From assembly GCA_024399655.1 (NCBI GenBank), contig JAKSNP010000010.1, forward strand, positions 1-64,000: a stretch of DNA of 64,000 bases. The letters are read 5' to 3'. Of the stretch, positions 1-4,986 are shown piece by piece; the stretch's first letter is position 1; every line of letters begins with the position of its first letter. A model generated the notes under the pieces. It saw only the letters and a program-made list of their open reading frames with translations. It was not told where the DNA came from and did no database searches. The DNA is from Paludibacteraceae bacterium (GTDB lineage: Bacteria; Bacteroidota; Bacteroidia; Bacteroidales; Paludibacteraceae). The position numbers were made by a program, and so were the translations under genes.

Positions 1-839
1 ATCAGAACGAGCGTTTTGCGCATTATGAGCCGGAATACAGCACGATATATGGTGCAAGATACCGTTTCACGGGCAAAGAATTGGATAGGGAGACGGGCTA
101 TACCTACAACGAGCAAAGATATCTGTGTACGGACGCAGGGATTTGGCTTTCTGTCGACCCGCTGGTGGACAAATACCTCAGCATCTCCCCCTACAACTAC
201 TGTAACTGGAATCCGATCAAGTATGTCGATCCGAATGGACAAGAATGGGAAAGCGAAGCTGATCAACAATATGCCCAAAAACTCCGTTCTGCTATAAACA
301 ATAAAATTAGTCAAATTGACAAACAACGTTCGCATACATACAACAAAAATAGGAGAAAGGAATTGTCAGATCGTCGCGATATTTTAGAAAGTGCTTTAGT
401 TGAGTTAAACGAGATGGAGGAAACCACCAAGTGTAGATTTAGATATGCAAGCGTTCATAAACAAGAAACAGCTTATACTGAATTGAGTGAAGATGGTCTC
501 ATAACAATGTATATTGATGAAGAATTATCAATAGAACTTGGTATTCATGAGTCTAGTCATGCATATGATATGTATAAATCACAAGATCAAAATAGTAGTG
601 CAAACTGCAATAGTGAAATCAAAGCCTATAGTAGGCAGTTGTCATTAATGGGTATACTTCCACAGAGTATATGCGATAAAACAATAGGAGGCTTCATCTC
701 TGTTTTTATAAATCCTCAAAAGCATCACAAGTTAAAAGATATTACACCTGATTGGGTCAGGGGAATCTATTATTATAATCCAGGTGATGAAAATGCAGAT
801 ATTTTTGGTCGCGTTTTCCCATATAAAAAATATAACTAA
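1..839 (+). CDS. RHS repeat-associated core protein, C-terminal part, with putative metallopeptidase toxin tip (5' end outside window)
   Basis: The reading frame is open at the left edge (first full codon at base 3), so this is the end of a larger RHS/YD-repeat protein. Residues encoded up to about base 240 are RHS core: RFTGKELDRETGY, then NPIKYVDPNG, the usual boundary before a variable tip. The tip (about 200 residues) has no core similarity. It carries HESSH (bases 546-560), a zinc-metallopeptidase HExxH signature, and a downstream Glu (codon 615-617, EIKAY) that could be the third zinc ligand. The tip is clearly related to that of the RHS protein at 1762: shared LGIHExSHAYD, a shared ExKAYxRQ segment, and DITPxxxRGI near the end. 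In RHS systems the C-terminal tip is the toxin. That this one cleaves protein is inferred from the motif only. A small exported protein follows 14 bases downstream. Confidence 0.85.
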   Translation, partial: QNERFAHYEPEYSTIYGARYRFTGKELDRETGYTYNEQRYLCTDAGIWLSVDPLVDKYLSISPYNYCNWNPIKYVDPNGQEWESEADQQYAQKLRSAINNKISQIDKQRSHTYNKNRRKELSDRRDILESALVELNEMEETTKCRFRYASVHKQETAYTELSEDGLITMYIDEELSIELGIHESSHAYDMYKSQDQNSSANCNSEIKAYSRQLSLMGILPQSICDKTIGGFISVFINPQKHHKLKDITPDWVRGIYYYNPGDENADIFGRVFPYKKYN

Positions 840-853
840 AAATAGTTGATGAC

Positions 854-1570
854 ATGGATATATCGCATAACATTAATCTCAAAGTATTAATTGTCATTTT
901 ATTAGCGGGAATTTGTGCTTTTTGGCCGCAAAAGTCATGTGGAAACTCTAAAGAAGATGAATATAATAGACCATTTAATCGTATTGATGCGGAAATCATA
1001 CGGAAAATGACAAAATATATGAGAGATTGTAATGATACCATTTCTGCTTTCATAATTAAGCAACGGTATAAAGCGCGTTGGCCTATTAGTTCGGACCCAG
1101 GAAGTCGTGAAGATGTACTTTTGTATTTATTTGAAAATGGTTATTTTTTTATGAGTGGCTATGGGTATCCGCTCACTATTGTATCAACCACTGGCGTAAA
1201 TTCAATGGGACGATGGAGCGAAACGGAGTCGTGTATTTATTTGCAATCTGACACTACATATCGGTCATCGACCGACATGATGAAAGAACCTTGTCCATTT
1301 TGTACTCCTATATGCTATGAATTTCATGACATGCCGCTCTATAAAAAAGACACGAAATTAATTATTAAGTCATGTCACCGGGATTGTTGTAGAGAAACGA
1401 GTCCATCGATGAAAGATCATTGTTATTATTATTATAAATCCAATAGATTTTTTAGAACATATTGTAATGCTGCTGATTGTAAGAACAAATGGTGGGATGA
1501 TCAGATGGTATGTCAACGTATTGCATTTACTATTTTAGAAGAGCGCGACGCCATTTGGGAATGGAAATGA
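854..1570 (+). CDS. hypothetical exported protein, candidate partner/immunity of the RHS tip
   Basis: This is a 238-residue protein of no family I recognise. The N-terminus has a hydrophobic stretch (LKVLIVILLAGICAFW) consistent with a signal peptide or membrane anchor. The mature part is rich in Cys and Tyr, including CPFCTPICYE and CHRDCCRE clusters that could hold metal or form disulphides. It starts 14 bases after the RHS stop, the usual position of an immunity gene in polymorphic toxin loci. The immunity role is inferred from position only. Export, if real, would suit a toxin acting in the periplasm or at the cell surface. The gene is AT-rich compared with the block from 5.4 kb onward. 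Confidence 0.6.
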   Translation: MDISHNINLKVLIVILLAGICAFWPQKSCGNSKEDEYNRPFNRIDAEIIRKMTKYMRDCNDTISAFIIKQRYKARWPISSDPGSREDVLLYLFENGYFFMSGYGYPLTIVSTTGVNSMGRWSETESCIYLQSDTTYRSSTDMMKEPCPFCTPICYEFHDMPLYKKDTKLIIKSCHRDCCRETSPSMKDHCYYYYKSNRFFRTYCNAADCKNKWWDDQMVCQRIAFTILEERDAIWEWK

Positions 1571-1598
1571 ATAAATAGACTATGATATATCTAGCTTC

Positions 1599-1629
1599 TT
1601 GCAATTGTAACTATCTTTTCGTACCTTTG
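1599..1629 (+). promoter_or_regulatory. Bacteroidetes-type promoter of the orphan RHS tip
   Basis: TTG at 1599-1601 and TACCTTTG at 1622-1629 are 20 bases apart, matching the -33/-7 pattern of Bacteroidetes sigma-ABfr promoters. The RHS tip starts about 130 bases downstream. Confidence 0.75.
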
Positions 1630-1712
1630 CAGGCAAAATACAGAGAAGTGGTATTTTGTTGCGAAACAGAAACCCAAAGCGATATTTGACATACCATCAT
1701 ATTCCCTACTCG
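1616..1712 (+). repeat. promoter/leader module, copy A
   Basis: This stretch starts at the promoter -7 box and runs to GATATTTGACATACCA. It recurs with a few substitutions and indels at 3489-3572. Shared blocks include TTTCGTACCTTTGCAGGC and CCAAAGCGATATTTGACATA. It looks like a duplicated 5' region that gives each tip cassette its own start of transcription. Confidence 0.75.
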
Positions 1713-1761
1713 AAGGACCAAAAAGGCTGTTTGACCATGTTGACGAACTCTAATTTACATT

Positions 1762-2718
1762 ATGTCAAATAGACCTGAGTGGGTTTCGGAGATATATTAC
1801 TATCATTCCGACCATCTGGGGTCGACTTCATGGGTGACGGACGGAGGAGGCAATCCCATAGAATATATCTCCTATCTCCCCTACGGAGAAGAATATCAGA
1901 ACGAGCGGTTCGCGCATTATGATGATAACATTTACGGCAAGGAAGCGAGATACCGTTTCACGGGCAAAGAATTGGACAGAGAAACGGGCTATACTTACAA
2001 CGAGCAACGATATCTGTGTACGGACTATGGCTTCTGGACAAGAGTCGATCCGCTGGTAGATAAATACCTCAACATCTCTCCCTATGCATATTGCAACAAT
2101 AATCCGTTGAAGTATGTCGACCCGGATGGAAGGCAATACGAATCTTCGGATGATCTCGCCTTCCACGATGAGTTGTATTCTGCTGTAGAAGCAAAGCTTA
2201 CAGAATTGGAAAATAAACCAGGCATGCATAGGAAAGAAATTAAGTCGTTAAATAATGCCCTTAATGAACTTGATTATATGAAATCTACGGAAGATTTTAT
2301 TTTCCATTTTGATAAAACCTCTCAAGCATATGGTGCTCAAACCAATATTATAGACGGTAAAATCGTTATGGAGTTACCACAAGAAGAGAGTCTGTGCCTA
2401 GGTATCCATGAAGCGTCGCATGCTTATGATTTGTCTCAGAAAATATTGGAATTGGGAGGTGATATTGGGAATAATGGAGATAAAGCCAAACGCCTTATAT
2501 ATAACATAGTAGGTGAACAAAAAGCATATCAACGGCAATTCCTTATAGGCGGATATAATAGCATGCCAAAATCTAAATATCTAGATTTACAACCCGGAGA
2601 ACACATGACCTATAATGACATTACTCCGCTATATATTAGAGGAATAGAATTATATGAAAAACAAGATGATGGCATATGTCATAAAAAGTATATATATGAA
2701 TCAATTGAAAGAAAATAA
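1762..2718 (+). CDS. orphan RHS core fragment with putative metallopeptidase toxin tip
   Basis: This 318-residue protein starts inside the RHS core (YYYHSDHLGSTSWVTDGGG) and lacks the YD-repeat shell. An in-frame TGA at 1741 shows the ATG at 1762 is a true beginning. The core runs to NPLKYVDPDGR near residue 122. The remaining ~195 residues form a tip with HEASH (residues 216-220, bases 2407-2421) and a possible third zinc ligand, Glu252, in EQKAYQRQ. The tip is a diverged homologue of the one ending at 839. Shell-less tips are known as orphan cassettes that can be recombined onto a full RHS gene through the shared core. Here the orphan has its own promoter and so may be expressed. The next gene overlaps its 3' end. 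Protease activity is inferred, and I cannot name the peptidase family. Confidence 0.8.
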   Translation: MSNRPEWVSEIYYYHSDHLGSTSWVTDGGGNPIEYISYLPYGEEYQNERFAHYDDNIYGKEARYRFTGKELDRETGYTYNEQRYLCTDYGFWTRVDPLVDKYLNISPYAYCNNNPLKYVDPDGRQYESSDDLAFHDELYSAVEAKLTELENKPGMHRKEIKSLNNALNELDYMKSTEDFIFHFDKTSQAYGAQTNIIDGKIVMELPQEESLCLGIHEASHAYDLSQKILELGGDIGNNGDKAKRLIYNIVGEQKAYQRQFLIGGYNSMPKSKYLDLQPGEHMTYNDITPLYIRGIELYEKQDDGICHKKYIYESIERK

Positions 2719-3310
2719 AATAATAATAGCTATTATAGCATCTGTTGTAATGTTGTTATCGTATGTTCAAGATGTATCTGCAGGAAAGTTTTATATACCT
2801 TGTTATTGGAATGATTCTACTTGGAATTGCGATTCTCTTTGTGTTTTATGGTTGCGTGAAGACTCTTCGTTTGTCTATTTTAAGAAATGGAGGGGGCCAA
2901 TAGATGAAATATCATGCGGCAGATGGAAAATAAACAATGATGTTTTGATACTCTATAGTGATAAAAAATACATTACTCACCCTAAAATTTTATATAACCG
3001 CTACAGATTAGATTATTGTCTATTATGGCAACAATATGATGGTTTGAAGTTTGTTATGCAAACAGATTCTTTAATAGTTAGTACACCTTTTCAGGATGCT
3101 AAATGTAGGCAGATACATTACAAGGATCGGTCTATTAACACACAAGTCAAGTCCAAAAACATTCAAGAATATAGTTTCGGGAAAAAGAATAGTTACATAT
3201 TTGATGGGAAGGTAGATATTAAAAGTATAAAATGGACTTATCGTTTAGTACCTATCTCTGTTGAAATAGAATTTCTCATCCAAGAGGCACGAGAAATTTT
3301 AAGCGATTGA
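2696..3310 (+). CDS. hypothetical exported protein, candidate partner of the orphan RHS tip
   Basis: I chose the ATG at 2696, which overlaps the RHS tip by 23 bases and gives 204 residues starting with a clear signal peptide (KIIIAIIASVVMLLSY, likely cut near VSAG). Upstream in-frame ATGs lie deep in the RHS gene and would spoil the signal. The mature part alternates short polar and aromatic stretches (ISCGRWKINNDVLILYS), resembling small beta-rich lipocalin-like proteins common in this phylum, but I cannot assign a family. Overlap with the toxin gene suggests translational coupling, as expected for an immunity protein. It shows no obvious similarity to the partner at 854 although the two tips are homologous. 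Confidence 0.6.
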   Translation: MNQLKENKIIIAIIASVVMLLSYVQDVSAGKFYIPCYWNDSTWNCDSLCVLWLREDSSFVYFKKWRGPIDEISCGRWKINNDVLILYSDKKYITHPKILYNRYRLDYCLLWQQYDGLKFVMQTDSLIVSTPFQDAKCRQIHYKDRSINTQVKSKNIQEYSFGKKNSYIFDGKVDIKSIKWTYRLVPISVEIEFLIQEAREILSD

Positions 3311-3471: not shown

Positions 3472-3503
3472 TTTGCCGGAATAAAATATTTTTCGTACCT
3501 TTG
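3472..3503 (+). promoter_or_regulatory. Bacteroidetes-type promoter of the third cassette
   Basis: TTTG at 3472-3475 and TACCTTTG at 3496-3503 are 20 bases apart. It is part of the second copy of the module that also precedes the RHS tip at 1762. Confidence 0.75.
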
Positions 3504-3572
3504 CAGGCGAATTGTGGAGAAATGATATTTTTGTTGTGAAACAAAAAGCCAAAGCGATATTTGACATACCAC
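3489..3572 (+). repeat. promoter/leader module, copy B
   Basis: Second copy of the module at 1616-1712. Identical blocks include TTTCGTACCTTTGCAGGC and CCAAAGCGATATTTGACATA, with small indels between them. Copy B ends at GACATACCA, after which the DNA switches to a piece of RHS core. Confidence 0.75.
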
Positions 3573-3574
3573 TA

Positions 3575-3595
3575 ATACCGATTCACGGGCAAAAA
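3575..3595 (+). repeat. RHS core remnant (recombination scar)
   Basis: The bases here match the RHS core segment at 59-80 and at 1950-1971, which encodes RFTGKE, with about two mismatches in 21. The match sits directly between the promoter/leader copy and the start codon of the next gene. It looks like what remains after deletion or exchange of an RHS cassette between leader and core. Confidence 0.65.
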
Positions 3596-3597
3596 AT

Positions 3598-4539
3598 ATG
3601 TTGAGAAAATCTATTATATTGCTCTTTATAGTGTTGCTGATTAGACCTGTTCAAATGATTCAGGCTCAGACCAGCAGCAATAAATATGTTGTGGTGGATA
3701 TAAAGAGACACGACAATCGGGTGTCGATAATTGATGTGCAGAGAAACGATTCAGTATTTCGCATTTATAGCATTATACGGGAACCTATTGACTCCACCTA
3801 TAGCCTACTAAGCATCGGAGATTCTCTGGAAGCAGAGTTGAATCGTTTTCCAAAAACATTTTTGGAAGTATCGAGCCTTGAAATAGTAGAAGAAATATAT
3901 CCTAAATTATATATCGGGAATCACTCGCCTCGGGGAACCGAAGGTGTATATCTATGTTCCCGTCTTAATGGGAAATATATCAAGAAAGATTCGTACCCTC
4001 CGTTTCCTGTAGGTCCGAGTGATTTCACATCCCCGCCTATTTATTATATGACTACGAAAAAAATTGATACTGAAATTTGTCATGGTATGGAGAGTCAAAT
4101 AAAGGATTCTACCTATTATTTGTACATCGGAGATTCTCTGGTTTTTACGATTGATAAAGGTGAGCTCCACACTTTCCCCATAATTTTGGCTGAAGCCTCA
4201 GTTCGTGAAGATGACAGATTTACCAAATTTTTATATGATTTTTGTCAAGACAGTGTGTTTCAAATGAAGCATATACGCTTCCCGTTGACCGTCAGAAATG
4301 TTCCTTATCTAAATAGTTCAAATACAGATATTTCTCATATAAATAGAAATCAATGGGAGATAATCGATTTTTGGAACTCTCATAAAAGGTTTATTTTAAC
4401 TGAATATCGAGAAAACAAGGACATAAGGTTGAATATCCAAATAGAGGATACCGGTAGATATACGGATTATTTGTTTAAAAAGCGACTGGGATCATGGATC
4501 TTATTCGGTATAACTGACAGAAGCAATCCGGCAGAATGA
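3598..4539 (+). CDS. exported protein, DUF4348-like C-terminal half
   Basis: 313 residues with a signal peptide (SIILLFIVLLIRPVQMIQAQ). The ATG at 3598 follows the RHS core scar directly. An internal repeat is visible: DSTYSLLSIGDSL near residue 65 and DSTYYLYIGDSL near 175. The last third (DRFTKFLYDFCQDSVFQMKHIRFPL, split as read, then WEIIDFWNSHKRF and a closing GSWILFGI) resembles the Bacteroidetes DUF4348 fold. I recall this pattern and cannot test it here. Function is unknown. Its position under a toxin-type promoter suggests it travelled with an RHS cassette, possibly as an immunity or accessory gene (inference). Confidence 0.6.
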   Translation: MLRKSIILLFIVLLIRPVQMIQAQTSSNKYVVVDIKRHDNRVSIIDVQRNDSVFRIYSIIREPIDSTYSLLSIGDSLEAELNRFPKTFLEVSSLEIVEEIYPKLYIGNHSPRGTEGVYLCSRLNGKYIKKDSYPPFPVGPSDFTSPPIYYMTTKKIDTEICHGMESQIKDSTYYLYIGDSLVFTIDKGELHTFPIILAEASVREDDRFTKFLYDFCQDSVFQMKHIRFPLTVRNVPYLNSSNTDISHINRNQWEIIDFWNSHKRFILTEYRENKDIRLNIQIEDTGRYTDYLFKKRLGSWILFGITDRSNPAE

Positions 4540-4608
4540 TATGTCACATATTTCAATAATGAATTAGCCCCAAAAAGTTTCCGAATAATTTGCACCTCAA
4601 ATCACACA

Positions 4609-4735
4609 GATTGCAGAATTGCACATCCATGCAGGTTCTTATTTTCTGGCCATTATATAATATATAATTATATATTAATAATGATTTTATTTTATGACCA
4701 CTACCAACCCACAACGATGTGCAATTCTGCAATCT
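4609..4735. repeat. 20-base perfect inverted repeat with AT-rich spacer
   Basis: AGATTGCAGAATTGCACATC at 4609-4628 is the exact reverse complement of 4716-4735. The 87-base spacer is AT-rich and has no open frame of note. It could be a miniature mobile element end pair, a protein-binding palindrome or a long hairpin. Confidence 0.75.
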
Positions 4736-4825
4736 ATACAATCTCTCCTACTCTCCCCTCTAAAACAAAACTTGTCATATCCCCCCCAAAAAAAAAGAAC
4801 AATATTTAGGTTTTTTAGCAACCAA

Positions 4826-4986
4826 AAGTAACAAGGTAACAAGGTAACAGGTTTTTTTGTGTTGGGTACACTTTTGGGGGTAGGGGGTATATAATATATA
4901 TATTATTAAAATAATATAATATTATAATTTTACATTGGATATCGTATCTGACAAAATTTCTTGTTACCTTGTTACCTTGTTACCTT
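4826..4986. repeat. inverted repeat made of tandem GGTAACAAG units
   Basis: The left arm 4826-4851 holds nearly three units of GGTAACAAG. The right arm 4960-4986 holds three units of the complement (CTTGTTACC). The arms share 21 bases of perfect complementarity. The spacer is a G-rich patch followed by alternating AT. The unit length of 9 and lack of unique spacers rule out CRISPR. Confidence 0.75.

What the first reader, a model, noticed from the sequence alone, without database searches (positions are those of the whole stretch)
1..2718. Two homologous RHS tips with an HExxH metallopeptidase signature
Both RHS C-termini end in a ~195-residue tip that shares LGIHExSHAYD, ExKAYxRQ and DITPxxxRGI. 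HExxH plus a downstream Glu suggests a zinc protease toxin. RHS toxin tips are often nucleases or deaminases, and I do not recognise this tip family. Two diverged copies in tandem point to active diversification.
Basis: partly seen in the sequence, partly recalled or inferred. Interest (0 to 1): 0.7.

Follow-up and report, generated by a model that had tools for sequence, protein, structure and literature searches.

The report
Zinc-protease toxin tips on RHS proteins
Two neighbouring bacterial weapon genes carry related tips that look like metal-dependent protein-cutting toxins, each followed by a gene that probably protects the producer; the type of weapon is known, but no curated family model that I scanned covers this tip.

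Summary
Window 228-839 and 2119-2718 encode homologous RHS C-terminal tips (29% identity, E 2e-18) with HExxH and a downstream Glu. The tips match no curated family. They belong to a diverged tip family scattered through Bacteroidales (19 other genomes of 393 searched in the order; 10 loci in named genomes). The downstream Glu is kept in 24 of 24 diverse rows chosen for HExxH; one further member has a broken HExxH. An AlphaFold model (pLDDT 78, pTM 0.78) puts HExxH and the Glu on successive helices after three strands. The five best PDB fold matches, all weak (E >= 0.02), are zinc peptidases. Other members connect distantly to Peptidase_M91 (HopH/NleD type). Best reading: zinc-metallopeptidase toxin tips of an interbacterial RHS system. 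Each is followed at once by a gene for an exported-looking protein; partner 2, more weakly partner 1, resembles partners of other family members rather than those of other tips, so they are probably immunity proteins, perhaps periplasmic. Activity, toxicity and site are inferred. The copies are not a recent duplication. Copy 1 is cut by the contig start; copy 2 is an orphan cassette with its own promoter-like site.

The parts
3..227 (+). 3' end of RHS core of copy 1, cut by the contig start
   Evidence: TIGR03696 58 bits; window base 1 = contig base 1; contig C4 starts with the same 55 bases
228..839 (+). Tip 1, predicted zinc metallopeptidase toxin domain (HExxH 546-560, third-ligand Glu 615-617)
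854..1570 (+). Partner gene 1: exported-looking protein, candidate immunity protein of tip 1 (assignment weak)
   Evidence: starts 14 bases after the tip 1 stop, hydrophobic N-terminus; partner profile 8.2 bits vs best control 5.8; no significant pairwise match
1599..1629 (+). Promoter-like site TTG-N20-TAnnTTTG before the orphan module
   Evidence: 14 such sites in window, both strands, vs 1.0 expected; repeated before module 3
1762..2118 (+). RHS core stub of the orphan module (119 aa before DPDG), no signal peptide by eye
   Evidence: TIGR03696 59.6 bits; ORF
2119..2718 (+). Tip 2, predicted zinc metallopeptidase toxin domain (HExxH 2407-2421, Glu 2515-2517)
2696..3310 (+). Partner gene 2: exported-looking protein, candidate immunity protein of tip 2, overlapping its end (the ORF tool gives the start at 2654; 2696 is my choice)
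   Evidence: phmmer 1.7e-4 and 4e-4 to partners in L090 and L097 in a set of 33; partner profile 14.3 bits vs best control 5.8
3473..3503 (+). Promoter-like site of module 3
3575..3597 (+). 23-base remnant of RHS core, 91% identical; no tip follows
   Evidence: repeat family D2
3598..4539 (+). Gene left alone in module 3, candidate orphan immunity gene (hydrophobic N-terminus by eye)
   Evidence: DUF4348 26.9 bits, just under the cut-off of 27.2; position after the repeated leader

Best explanation
The two tips are zinc metallopeptidase toxin domains (HExxH plus a downstream Glu as third ligand) at the C-termini of RHS polymorphic toxins used against other bacteria. Copy 1 is probably the tip of a full-length RHS protein. 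Copy 2 is an orphan tip/partner cassette that could be recombined onto the RHS core. The gene directly behind each tip encodes an exported-looking protein that most likely binds and blocks the peptidase, so the tip most likely cuts a protein in the periplasm of the target cell. Shown: homology, conserved putative metal-site residues, predicted order of strands and helices, conserved tip-partner gene order. Inferred: zinc binding, peptidase activity, toxicity, inhibition, periplasmic site, substrate.
For: H, E, H and E stand in 24 of 24 diverse rows and 12 of 12 close rows; HExxH was a selection rule for the diverse rows, the downstream Glu was not. 18-36 residues lie between second His and Glu. 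Of 26 places found by profile in other genomes of the order, 24 belong to the family with HExxH, one (L098) is spurious and one (L091) has HEGTNSH. Model of tip 1: strands 70-76, 83-86, 91-97, helix 102-118 holding HExxH, helix 127-141 holding E130, pLDDT 78, pTM 0.78. The five best of 155 Foldseek matches are zinc peptidases (1g12 and 1ge6, the same fungal enzyme; PprI 8slm; selecase 4qhf; M61 7xyo), E 0.02-0.46. Other members reach DUF6782 putative metallopeptidase (4 of 24, best 3.2e-4), Peptidase_M91 (3 of 24, 1.4e-4) and XopG/HopH (3 of 24, 6.3e-5). hhalign: near subfamily to rest of family 99.6%, rest to M91 tips 95.7%, unrelated tips 2.7-3.1%. A partner ORF follows 33 of 35 motif-bearing tip loci, the other two lying at contig ends. 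Both window partners and 9 of 15 held-out family partners score above every one of 31 partners of other tips.
Against: The tips themselves hit no peptidase family, and the tip subfamily reaches M91 directly at only 20%. In some searches unrelated coiled-coil models reach similar E-values (SpiroCoCo_C 4.9e-5, ASRP 1.6e-4), presumably through the N-terminal helices, so the M91 and HopH hits are suggestive only. Fold matches are weak, none with E <= 0.001. L091 is a family member (2.3e-12) whose motif reads HEGTNSH, so the site is not kept everywhere. Partner 1 has no significant pairwise relative, and 6 of 15 held-out partners do not beat the controls. An exported partner is not special to peptidase tips: 27 of 31 other RHS tips in the genus also have one by my rule, so the compartment is weakly argued. 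Delivery is unknown: no T6SS sheath gene (VipB) in 178 genus genomes.
Confidence: 0.72

Rival explanations
1. The tip is a processing protease that releases or matures the RHS protein rather than a toxin.
For: PVC-type metallopeptidases with an HExxHxxQ-E signature are proposed to do this in other polymorphic toxins (PMC3482391, passages read).
Against: It sits at the extreme C-terminus with nothing behind it to release, the genus carries many other tips at the same DPxG joint, and it has its own partner gene.
Confidence: 0.08
2. The tip is an effector against eukaryotic cells, like NleD/HopH1, cutting a host protein.
For: The broad family is distantly linked to M91/HopH.
Against: An exported-looking partner gene follows 33 of 35 tips, which fits self-protection.
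Confidence: 0.1
3. Both copies are decayed reserve cassettes without activity.
For: Copy 2 lacks an export signal by eye, module 3 has no tip; one relative elsewhere has a broken motif (L091).
Against: HExxH and the downstream Glu are kept in both copies despite about 2.7 changes per column between them, and the frames are open.
Confidence: 0.08

Closest known systems
Tox-MPTase1-5 and Tox-HopH1 (Peptidase_M91) tips of polymorphic toxins (Zhang et al. 2012, PMC3482391, passages only)
   Same: Zincin-like HExxH domain at the C-terminus of RHS proteins, also in Bacteroidetes
   Different: The window tips reach no such Pfam model; two long N-terminal helices; E..AY..Q motif; exported-looking partner gene, where the table passage lists no immunity protein for MPTase1-5 or HopH1
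VgrG2b C-terminal metallopeptidase with immunity PA0261 (Tpe/Tpi; Wood et al. 2019, PMC6899460, abstract and passages)
   Same: Antibacterial metallopeptidase that acts in the periplasm; immunity protein exported, in some relatives a lipoprotein
   Different: Carried on a T6SS spike; the 178 genus genomes here have no VipB; no VgrG2b hit in the PDB sequence searches
DUF6782 putative metallopeptidase family (PF20573)
   Same: 4 of 24 family members hit it weakly, best 3.2e-4
   Different: The window tips do not hit it
TANFOR polymorphic toxins of Bacteroidetes (PMC7073777, passages)
   Same: Bacteroidetes polymorphic toxins with signal peptide and downstream immunity gene
   Different: Other N-terminal domain; the tip tested there is a DNase

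Membership tests
RHS polymorphic toxin | RHS-associated core domain before a variable tip | tested here: met
   TIGR03696 58 and 59.6 bits over cut-off 32.5; many tips at the same joint in the genus
RHS polymorphic toxin | adjacent immunity gene | tested here: inconclusive
   partner gene directly behind each tip and family-linked profile; protection not testable
RHS polymorphic toxin | full-length RHS repeat protein with export | tested here: inconclusive
   copy 1 cut at contig start, copy 2 a stub; no RHS_repeat match in the own genome; a relative, L073:7626-16565, has a hydrophobic N-terminus by eye, SpvB, TcdB_midN and RHS repeats
HExxH zinc peptidase (zincin, Glu third ligand) | HExxH and downstream Glu conserved | tested here: met
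   in both tips and 24 of 24 rows (rows selected for HExxH, not for the Glu); broken in L091
HExxH zinc peptidase (zincin, Glu third ligand) | fold with sheet, active-site helix, ligand helix | tested here: inconclusive
   predicted order fits; best fold matches are zinc peptidases but E >= 0.02
HExxH zinc peptidase (zincin, Glu third ligand) | both His and Glu close around one metal; zinc bound | not testable with these tools
   no model coordinates returned
Peptidase_M91 / Tox-HopH1 | score over PF14891 cut-off (25 bits) | tested here: not met
   no hit for the tips; none in the whole genome up to E 10, no candidate passing the first look
Tox-MPTase families (that Pfam holds models of them is recalled) | score over the curated cut-off | tested here: not met
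   scan of all Pfam-A up to E 10 lists none, HMMER's filters on
Tpe/Tpi (VgrG2b type) | sequence or fold relation to VgrG2b metallopeptidase | tested here: inconclusive
   no VgrG2b-named hit in PDB sequence searches or the 50 of 155 fold matches listed; that its structure is held was not checked
Tpe/Tpi (VgrG2b type) | toxicity in periplasm, exported immunity | not testable with these tools
   partner exported by my rule; toxicity needs the bench

The most novel reading that the evidence does not exclude
A widespread, so far uncurated family of Bacteroidales RHS tips works as periplasmic zinc peptidases, each paired with its own line of exported beta-rich (lipocalin-like) lipoprotein inhibitors, and is delivered without a type VI secretion system by SpvB/TcdB-type RHS proteins that swap tips from promoter-bearing orphan cassettes.
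Probability: 0.3. Interest if true: 0.6.

Novelty: new member of a known kind. Interest (0 to 1): 0.4.

Why it matters
Bacteroidales are major gut bacteria. A family of peptidase tips with its own partner-protein line gives a direct test of how RHS proteins attack neighbours where no type VI sheath gene is found, and which envelope protein is cut. As a kind of system it is not new: metallopeptidase RHS tips are described.

Tried and rejected
Tip profile A1 in 395 genomes of the phylum gave 7 weak hits outside this genome; none of those loci shows an open frame of over 90 aa with HExxH, so I read them as coiled-coil matches. The genus hit L011 (0.007) lies in a long repeat protein, not an RHS tip. 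Nothing in viral contigs, plasmids (tip 1 only) or phages (tip 2 only). The first genome-contig scan with A1 found nothing; the second, with a better alignment, found 10. PDB sequence searches with tip profiles gave no peptidase with E below 1 (secreted protease C at 1.8; an agmatine ureohydrolase at 0.08 does not cover the HExxH); those with the partner profile gave galectin-3 at 0.1, read as chance. Weak Pfam hints of NlpE and Lipocalin_4 for partners (2 and 1 of 9, best 0.072 and 0.033) are leads only. A fold of the partner (A7) was never accepted by the busy machine.

The 16 training partners were chosen after seeing cross-matches, two of the 15 held-out ones are the same sequence, three of 31 controls and 3 to 5 of each 100 shuffles got no reported score, and three controls are near copies. 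The export rule is a hydrophobicity rule of mine, not SignalP.

Full report
What is there. The window is the first 64 kb of contig C2 of a 1.4 Mb, 75% complete genome. The ten relatives fetched by name carry Bacteroidales or Bacteroidia titles. Two frames carry an RHS-associated core followed by a tip: 3-839, open at the contig start, and 1762-2718. The core DNA of the two copies is 81% identical over 186 bases.

Family. No library names the tips. A first search with tip 2 in 300 genomes of the taxonomic family found only the two window copies. I then took RHS tips from 40 stretches of own- and same-genus genomes (47 tip calls, some of them double) and found remote relatives with HExxH. A profile with three of these and the two window tips (A2) matched in 21 of 393 genomes of the order: the own genome, one spurious hit (L098) and 19 others. 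The tip in L087 matches tip 1 at 2e-20 and tip 2 at 6e-14 in pairwise BLASTP. A genome-contig scan found 10 loci in named genomes (Azobacteroides, Bacteroides, Mediterranea and others), of 32 stretches that fitted a pattern. Within the genus 8 of 178 genomes have a match, the own included; two of these (G165, G251) are weak partial matches.

Active site. In 12 close rows HExxH, the downstream Glu and KAY..Q are invariant; in 24 diverse rows only H107, E108, H111 and E130 are, with A133 and Y134 among the columns kept in at least 90%. The diverse rows had been picked for HE..H, so the two His and the first Glu are partly selected; E130 is not. So 24 of 25 true family places outside this genome keep HExxH. 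The spacer from second His to Glu is 18-36 residues. The AlphaFold model of tip 1 (12 rows, pLDDT 77.9, pTM 0.78) has two long N-terminal helices, three strands, helix 102-118 with HExxH and helix 127-141 with E130; residues 145-155 and 185-203 are unreliable. Foldseek gives no match at E <= 0.001, but the five best of 155 are zinc peptidases, two of them the same enzyme. hhalign links the near subfamily to the rest of the family (99.6%) and the rest to M91 tips of the same genus (95.7%), with controls at 2.7-3.1%; the near subfamily itself reaches M91 only at 20%. Sub-threshold Pfam and NCBIfam hits of other members agree, but coiled-coil models reach similar E-values there.

Partner genes. 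Directly behind the tips (14 bases after the stop of tip 1; overlapping the end of tip 2) lies a gene for a protein with a hydrophobic N-terminus. All 33 of 35 motif-bearing family loci that have a downstream ORF fit; the two others end at a contig end. The 8 partners aligned from named loci have a Cys at a lipobox-like place by eye; window partner 2 does not. Control: 27 of 31 other RHS tips in the genus also have an exported partner by the same rule, so export is a habit of these RHS loci rather than of peptidase tips. The partner sequence family is more specific: a profile of 16 partners scores partner 2 at 14.3 bits and partner 1 at 8.2, above 31 control partners (best 5.8) and the shuffles (best 6.4 and 5.8); 9 of 15 held-out family partners are also above the controls and 6 are not. 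For partner 1 this is weak.

Locus history. The tree puts tip 1 and tip 2 together (92/81) with branches of 1.1 and 1.62; the pair is old, and a recent tandem duplication does not fit this divergence. Copy 2 and the remnant module 3 each follow a repeated leader with a TTG-N20-TAnnTTTG site, a pattern I recall as the Bacteroidetes promoter. Copy 2 shows no export signal by eye, as expected of an orphan cassette. Contig C4 starts with the same 55 bases and continues into another tip, which suggests that the assembly broke inside a shared RHS core. The full-length RHS of a relative has SpvB, FG-GAP, TcdB_midN and RHS repeats ahead of an M91 tip.

Mechanism. Most likely the tip is a zinc peptidase toxin that the exported partner neutralises, as in VgrG2b/PA0261, where toxicity is periplasmic and the immunity protein needs its signal peptide (PMC6899460, abstract and passages). 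That an orphan tip without export signal is kept behind its own promoter-like site also fits a target outside the cytoplasm, but is no proof. Delivery is open: no VipB in 178 genus genomes (68 of them at least 90% complete), while the control rang in E. coli.

Novelty. Metallopeptidase tips on RHS proteins are known (PMC3482391, passages). I saw no paper on this family in the listings of searches, which cover open-licence papers only and cannot find a family that bears another name. I rate it a new member of a known kind.

Noticed in passing
L062:227-788 (contig C4 of the same genome, 1-9000): Contig C4 starts with the same 55 bases as the window and ends its RHS core in a different tip with IHVFGHG and FHSCQVG motifs, similar to tips in several genus loci (caspase-like by recall).
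   Followed up: partly
L091, minus strand, frame of 312 aa: A family member whose HExxH reads HEGTNSH while the rest of the tip and an exported-looking partner gene are kept: possibly an inactive tip.
   Followed up: partly
window 3473-4539: Third module with leader repeat, 23 bases of RHS core and a lone gene (DUF4348, just below cut-off): candidate orphan immunity gene.
   Followed up: partly
window, 14 sites incl. 1599-1629 and 3473-3503: TTG-N20-TAnnTTTG occurs 14 times against 1.0 expected, so it looks like the genome's promoter pattern.
   Followed up: partly
L073:7626-16565 and L064, L066, L080: Same-genus RHS loci hold several tips in a row, some beside a gene of about 3000 codons, with many different tips, some of which look like cysteine peptidases or NlpC-type (by eye).
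   Followed up: no
window 4608-4735 and 4825-4986: Two long imperfect inverted repeats (30 and 36 bases, 87 and 86% complementary) behind the RHS locus, the second built of GGTAACAA repeats.
   Followed up: no
L111:4621 and 6807; L114:4642 and 6023: Some named genomes carry two motif-bearing tips of this broad family close together, as in the window.
   Followed up: no
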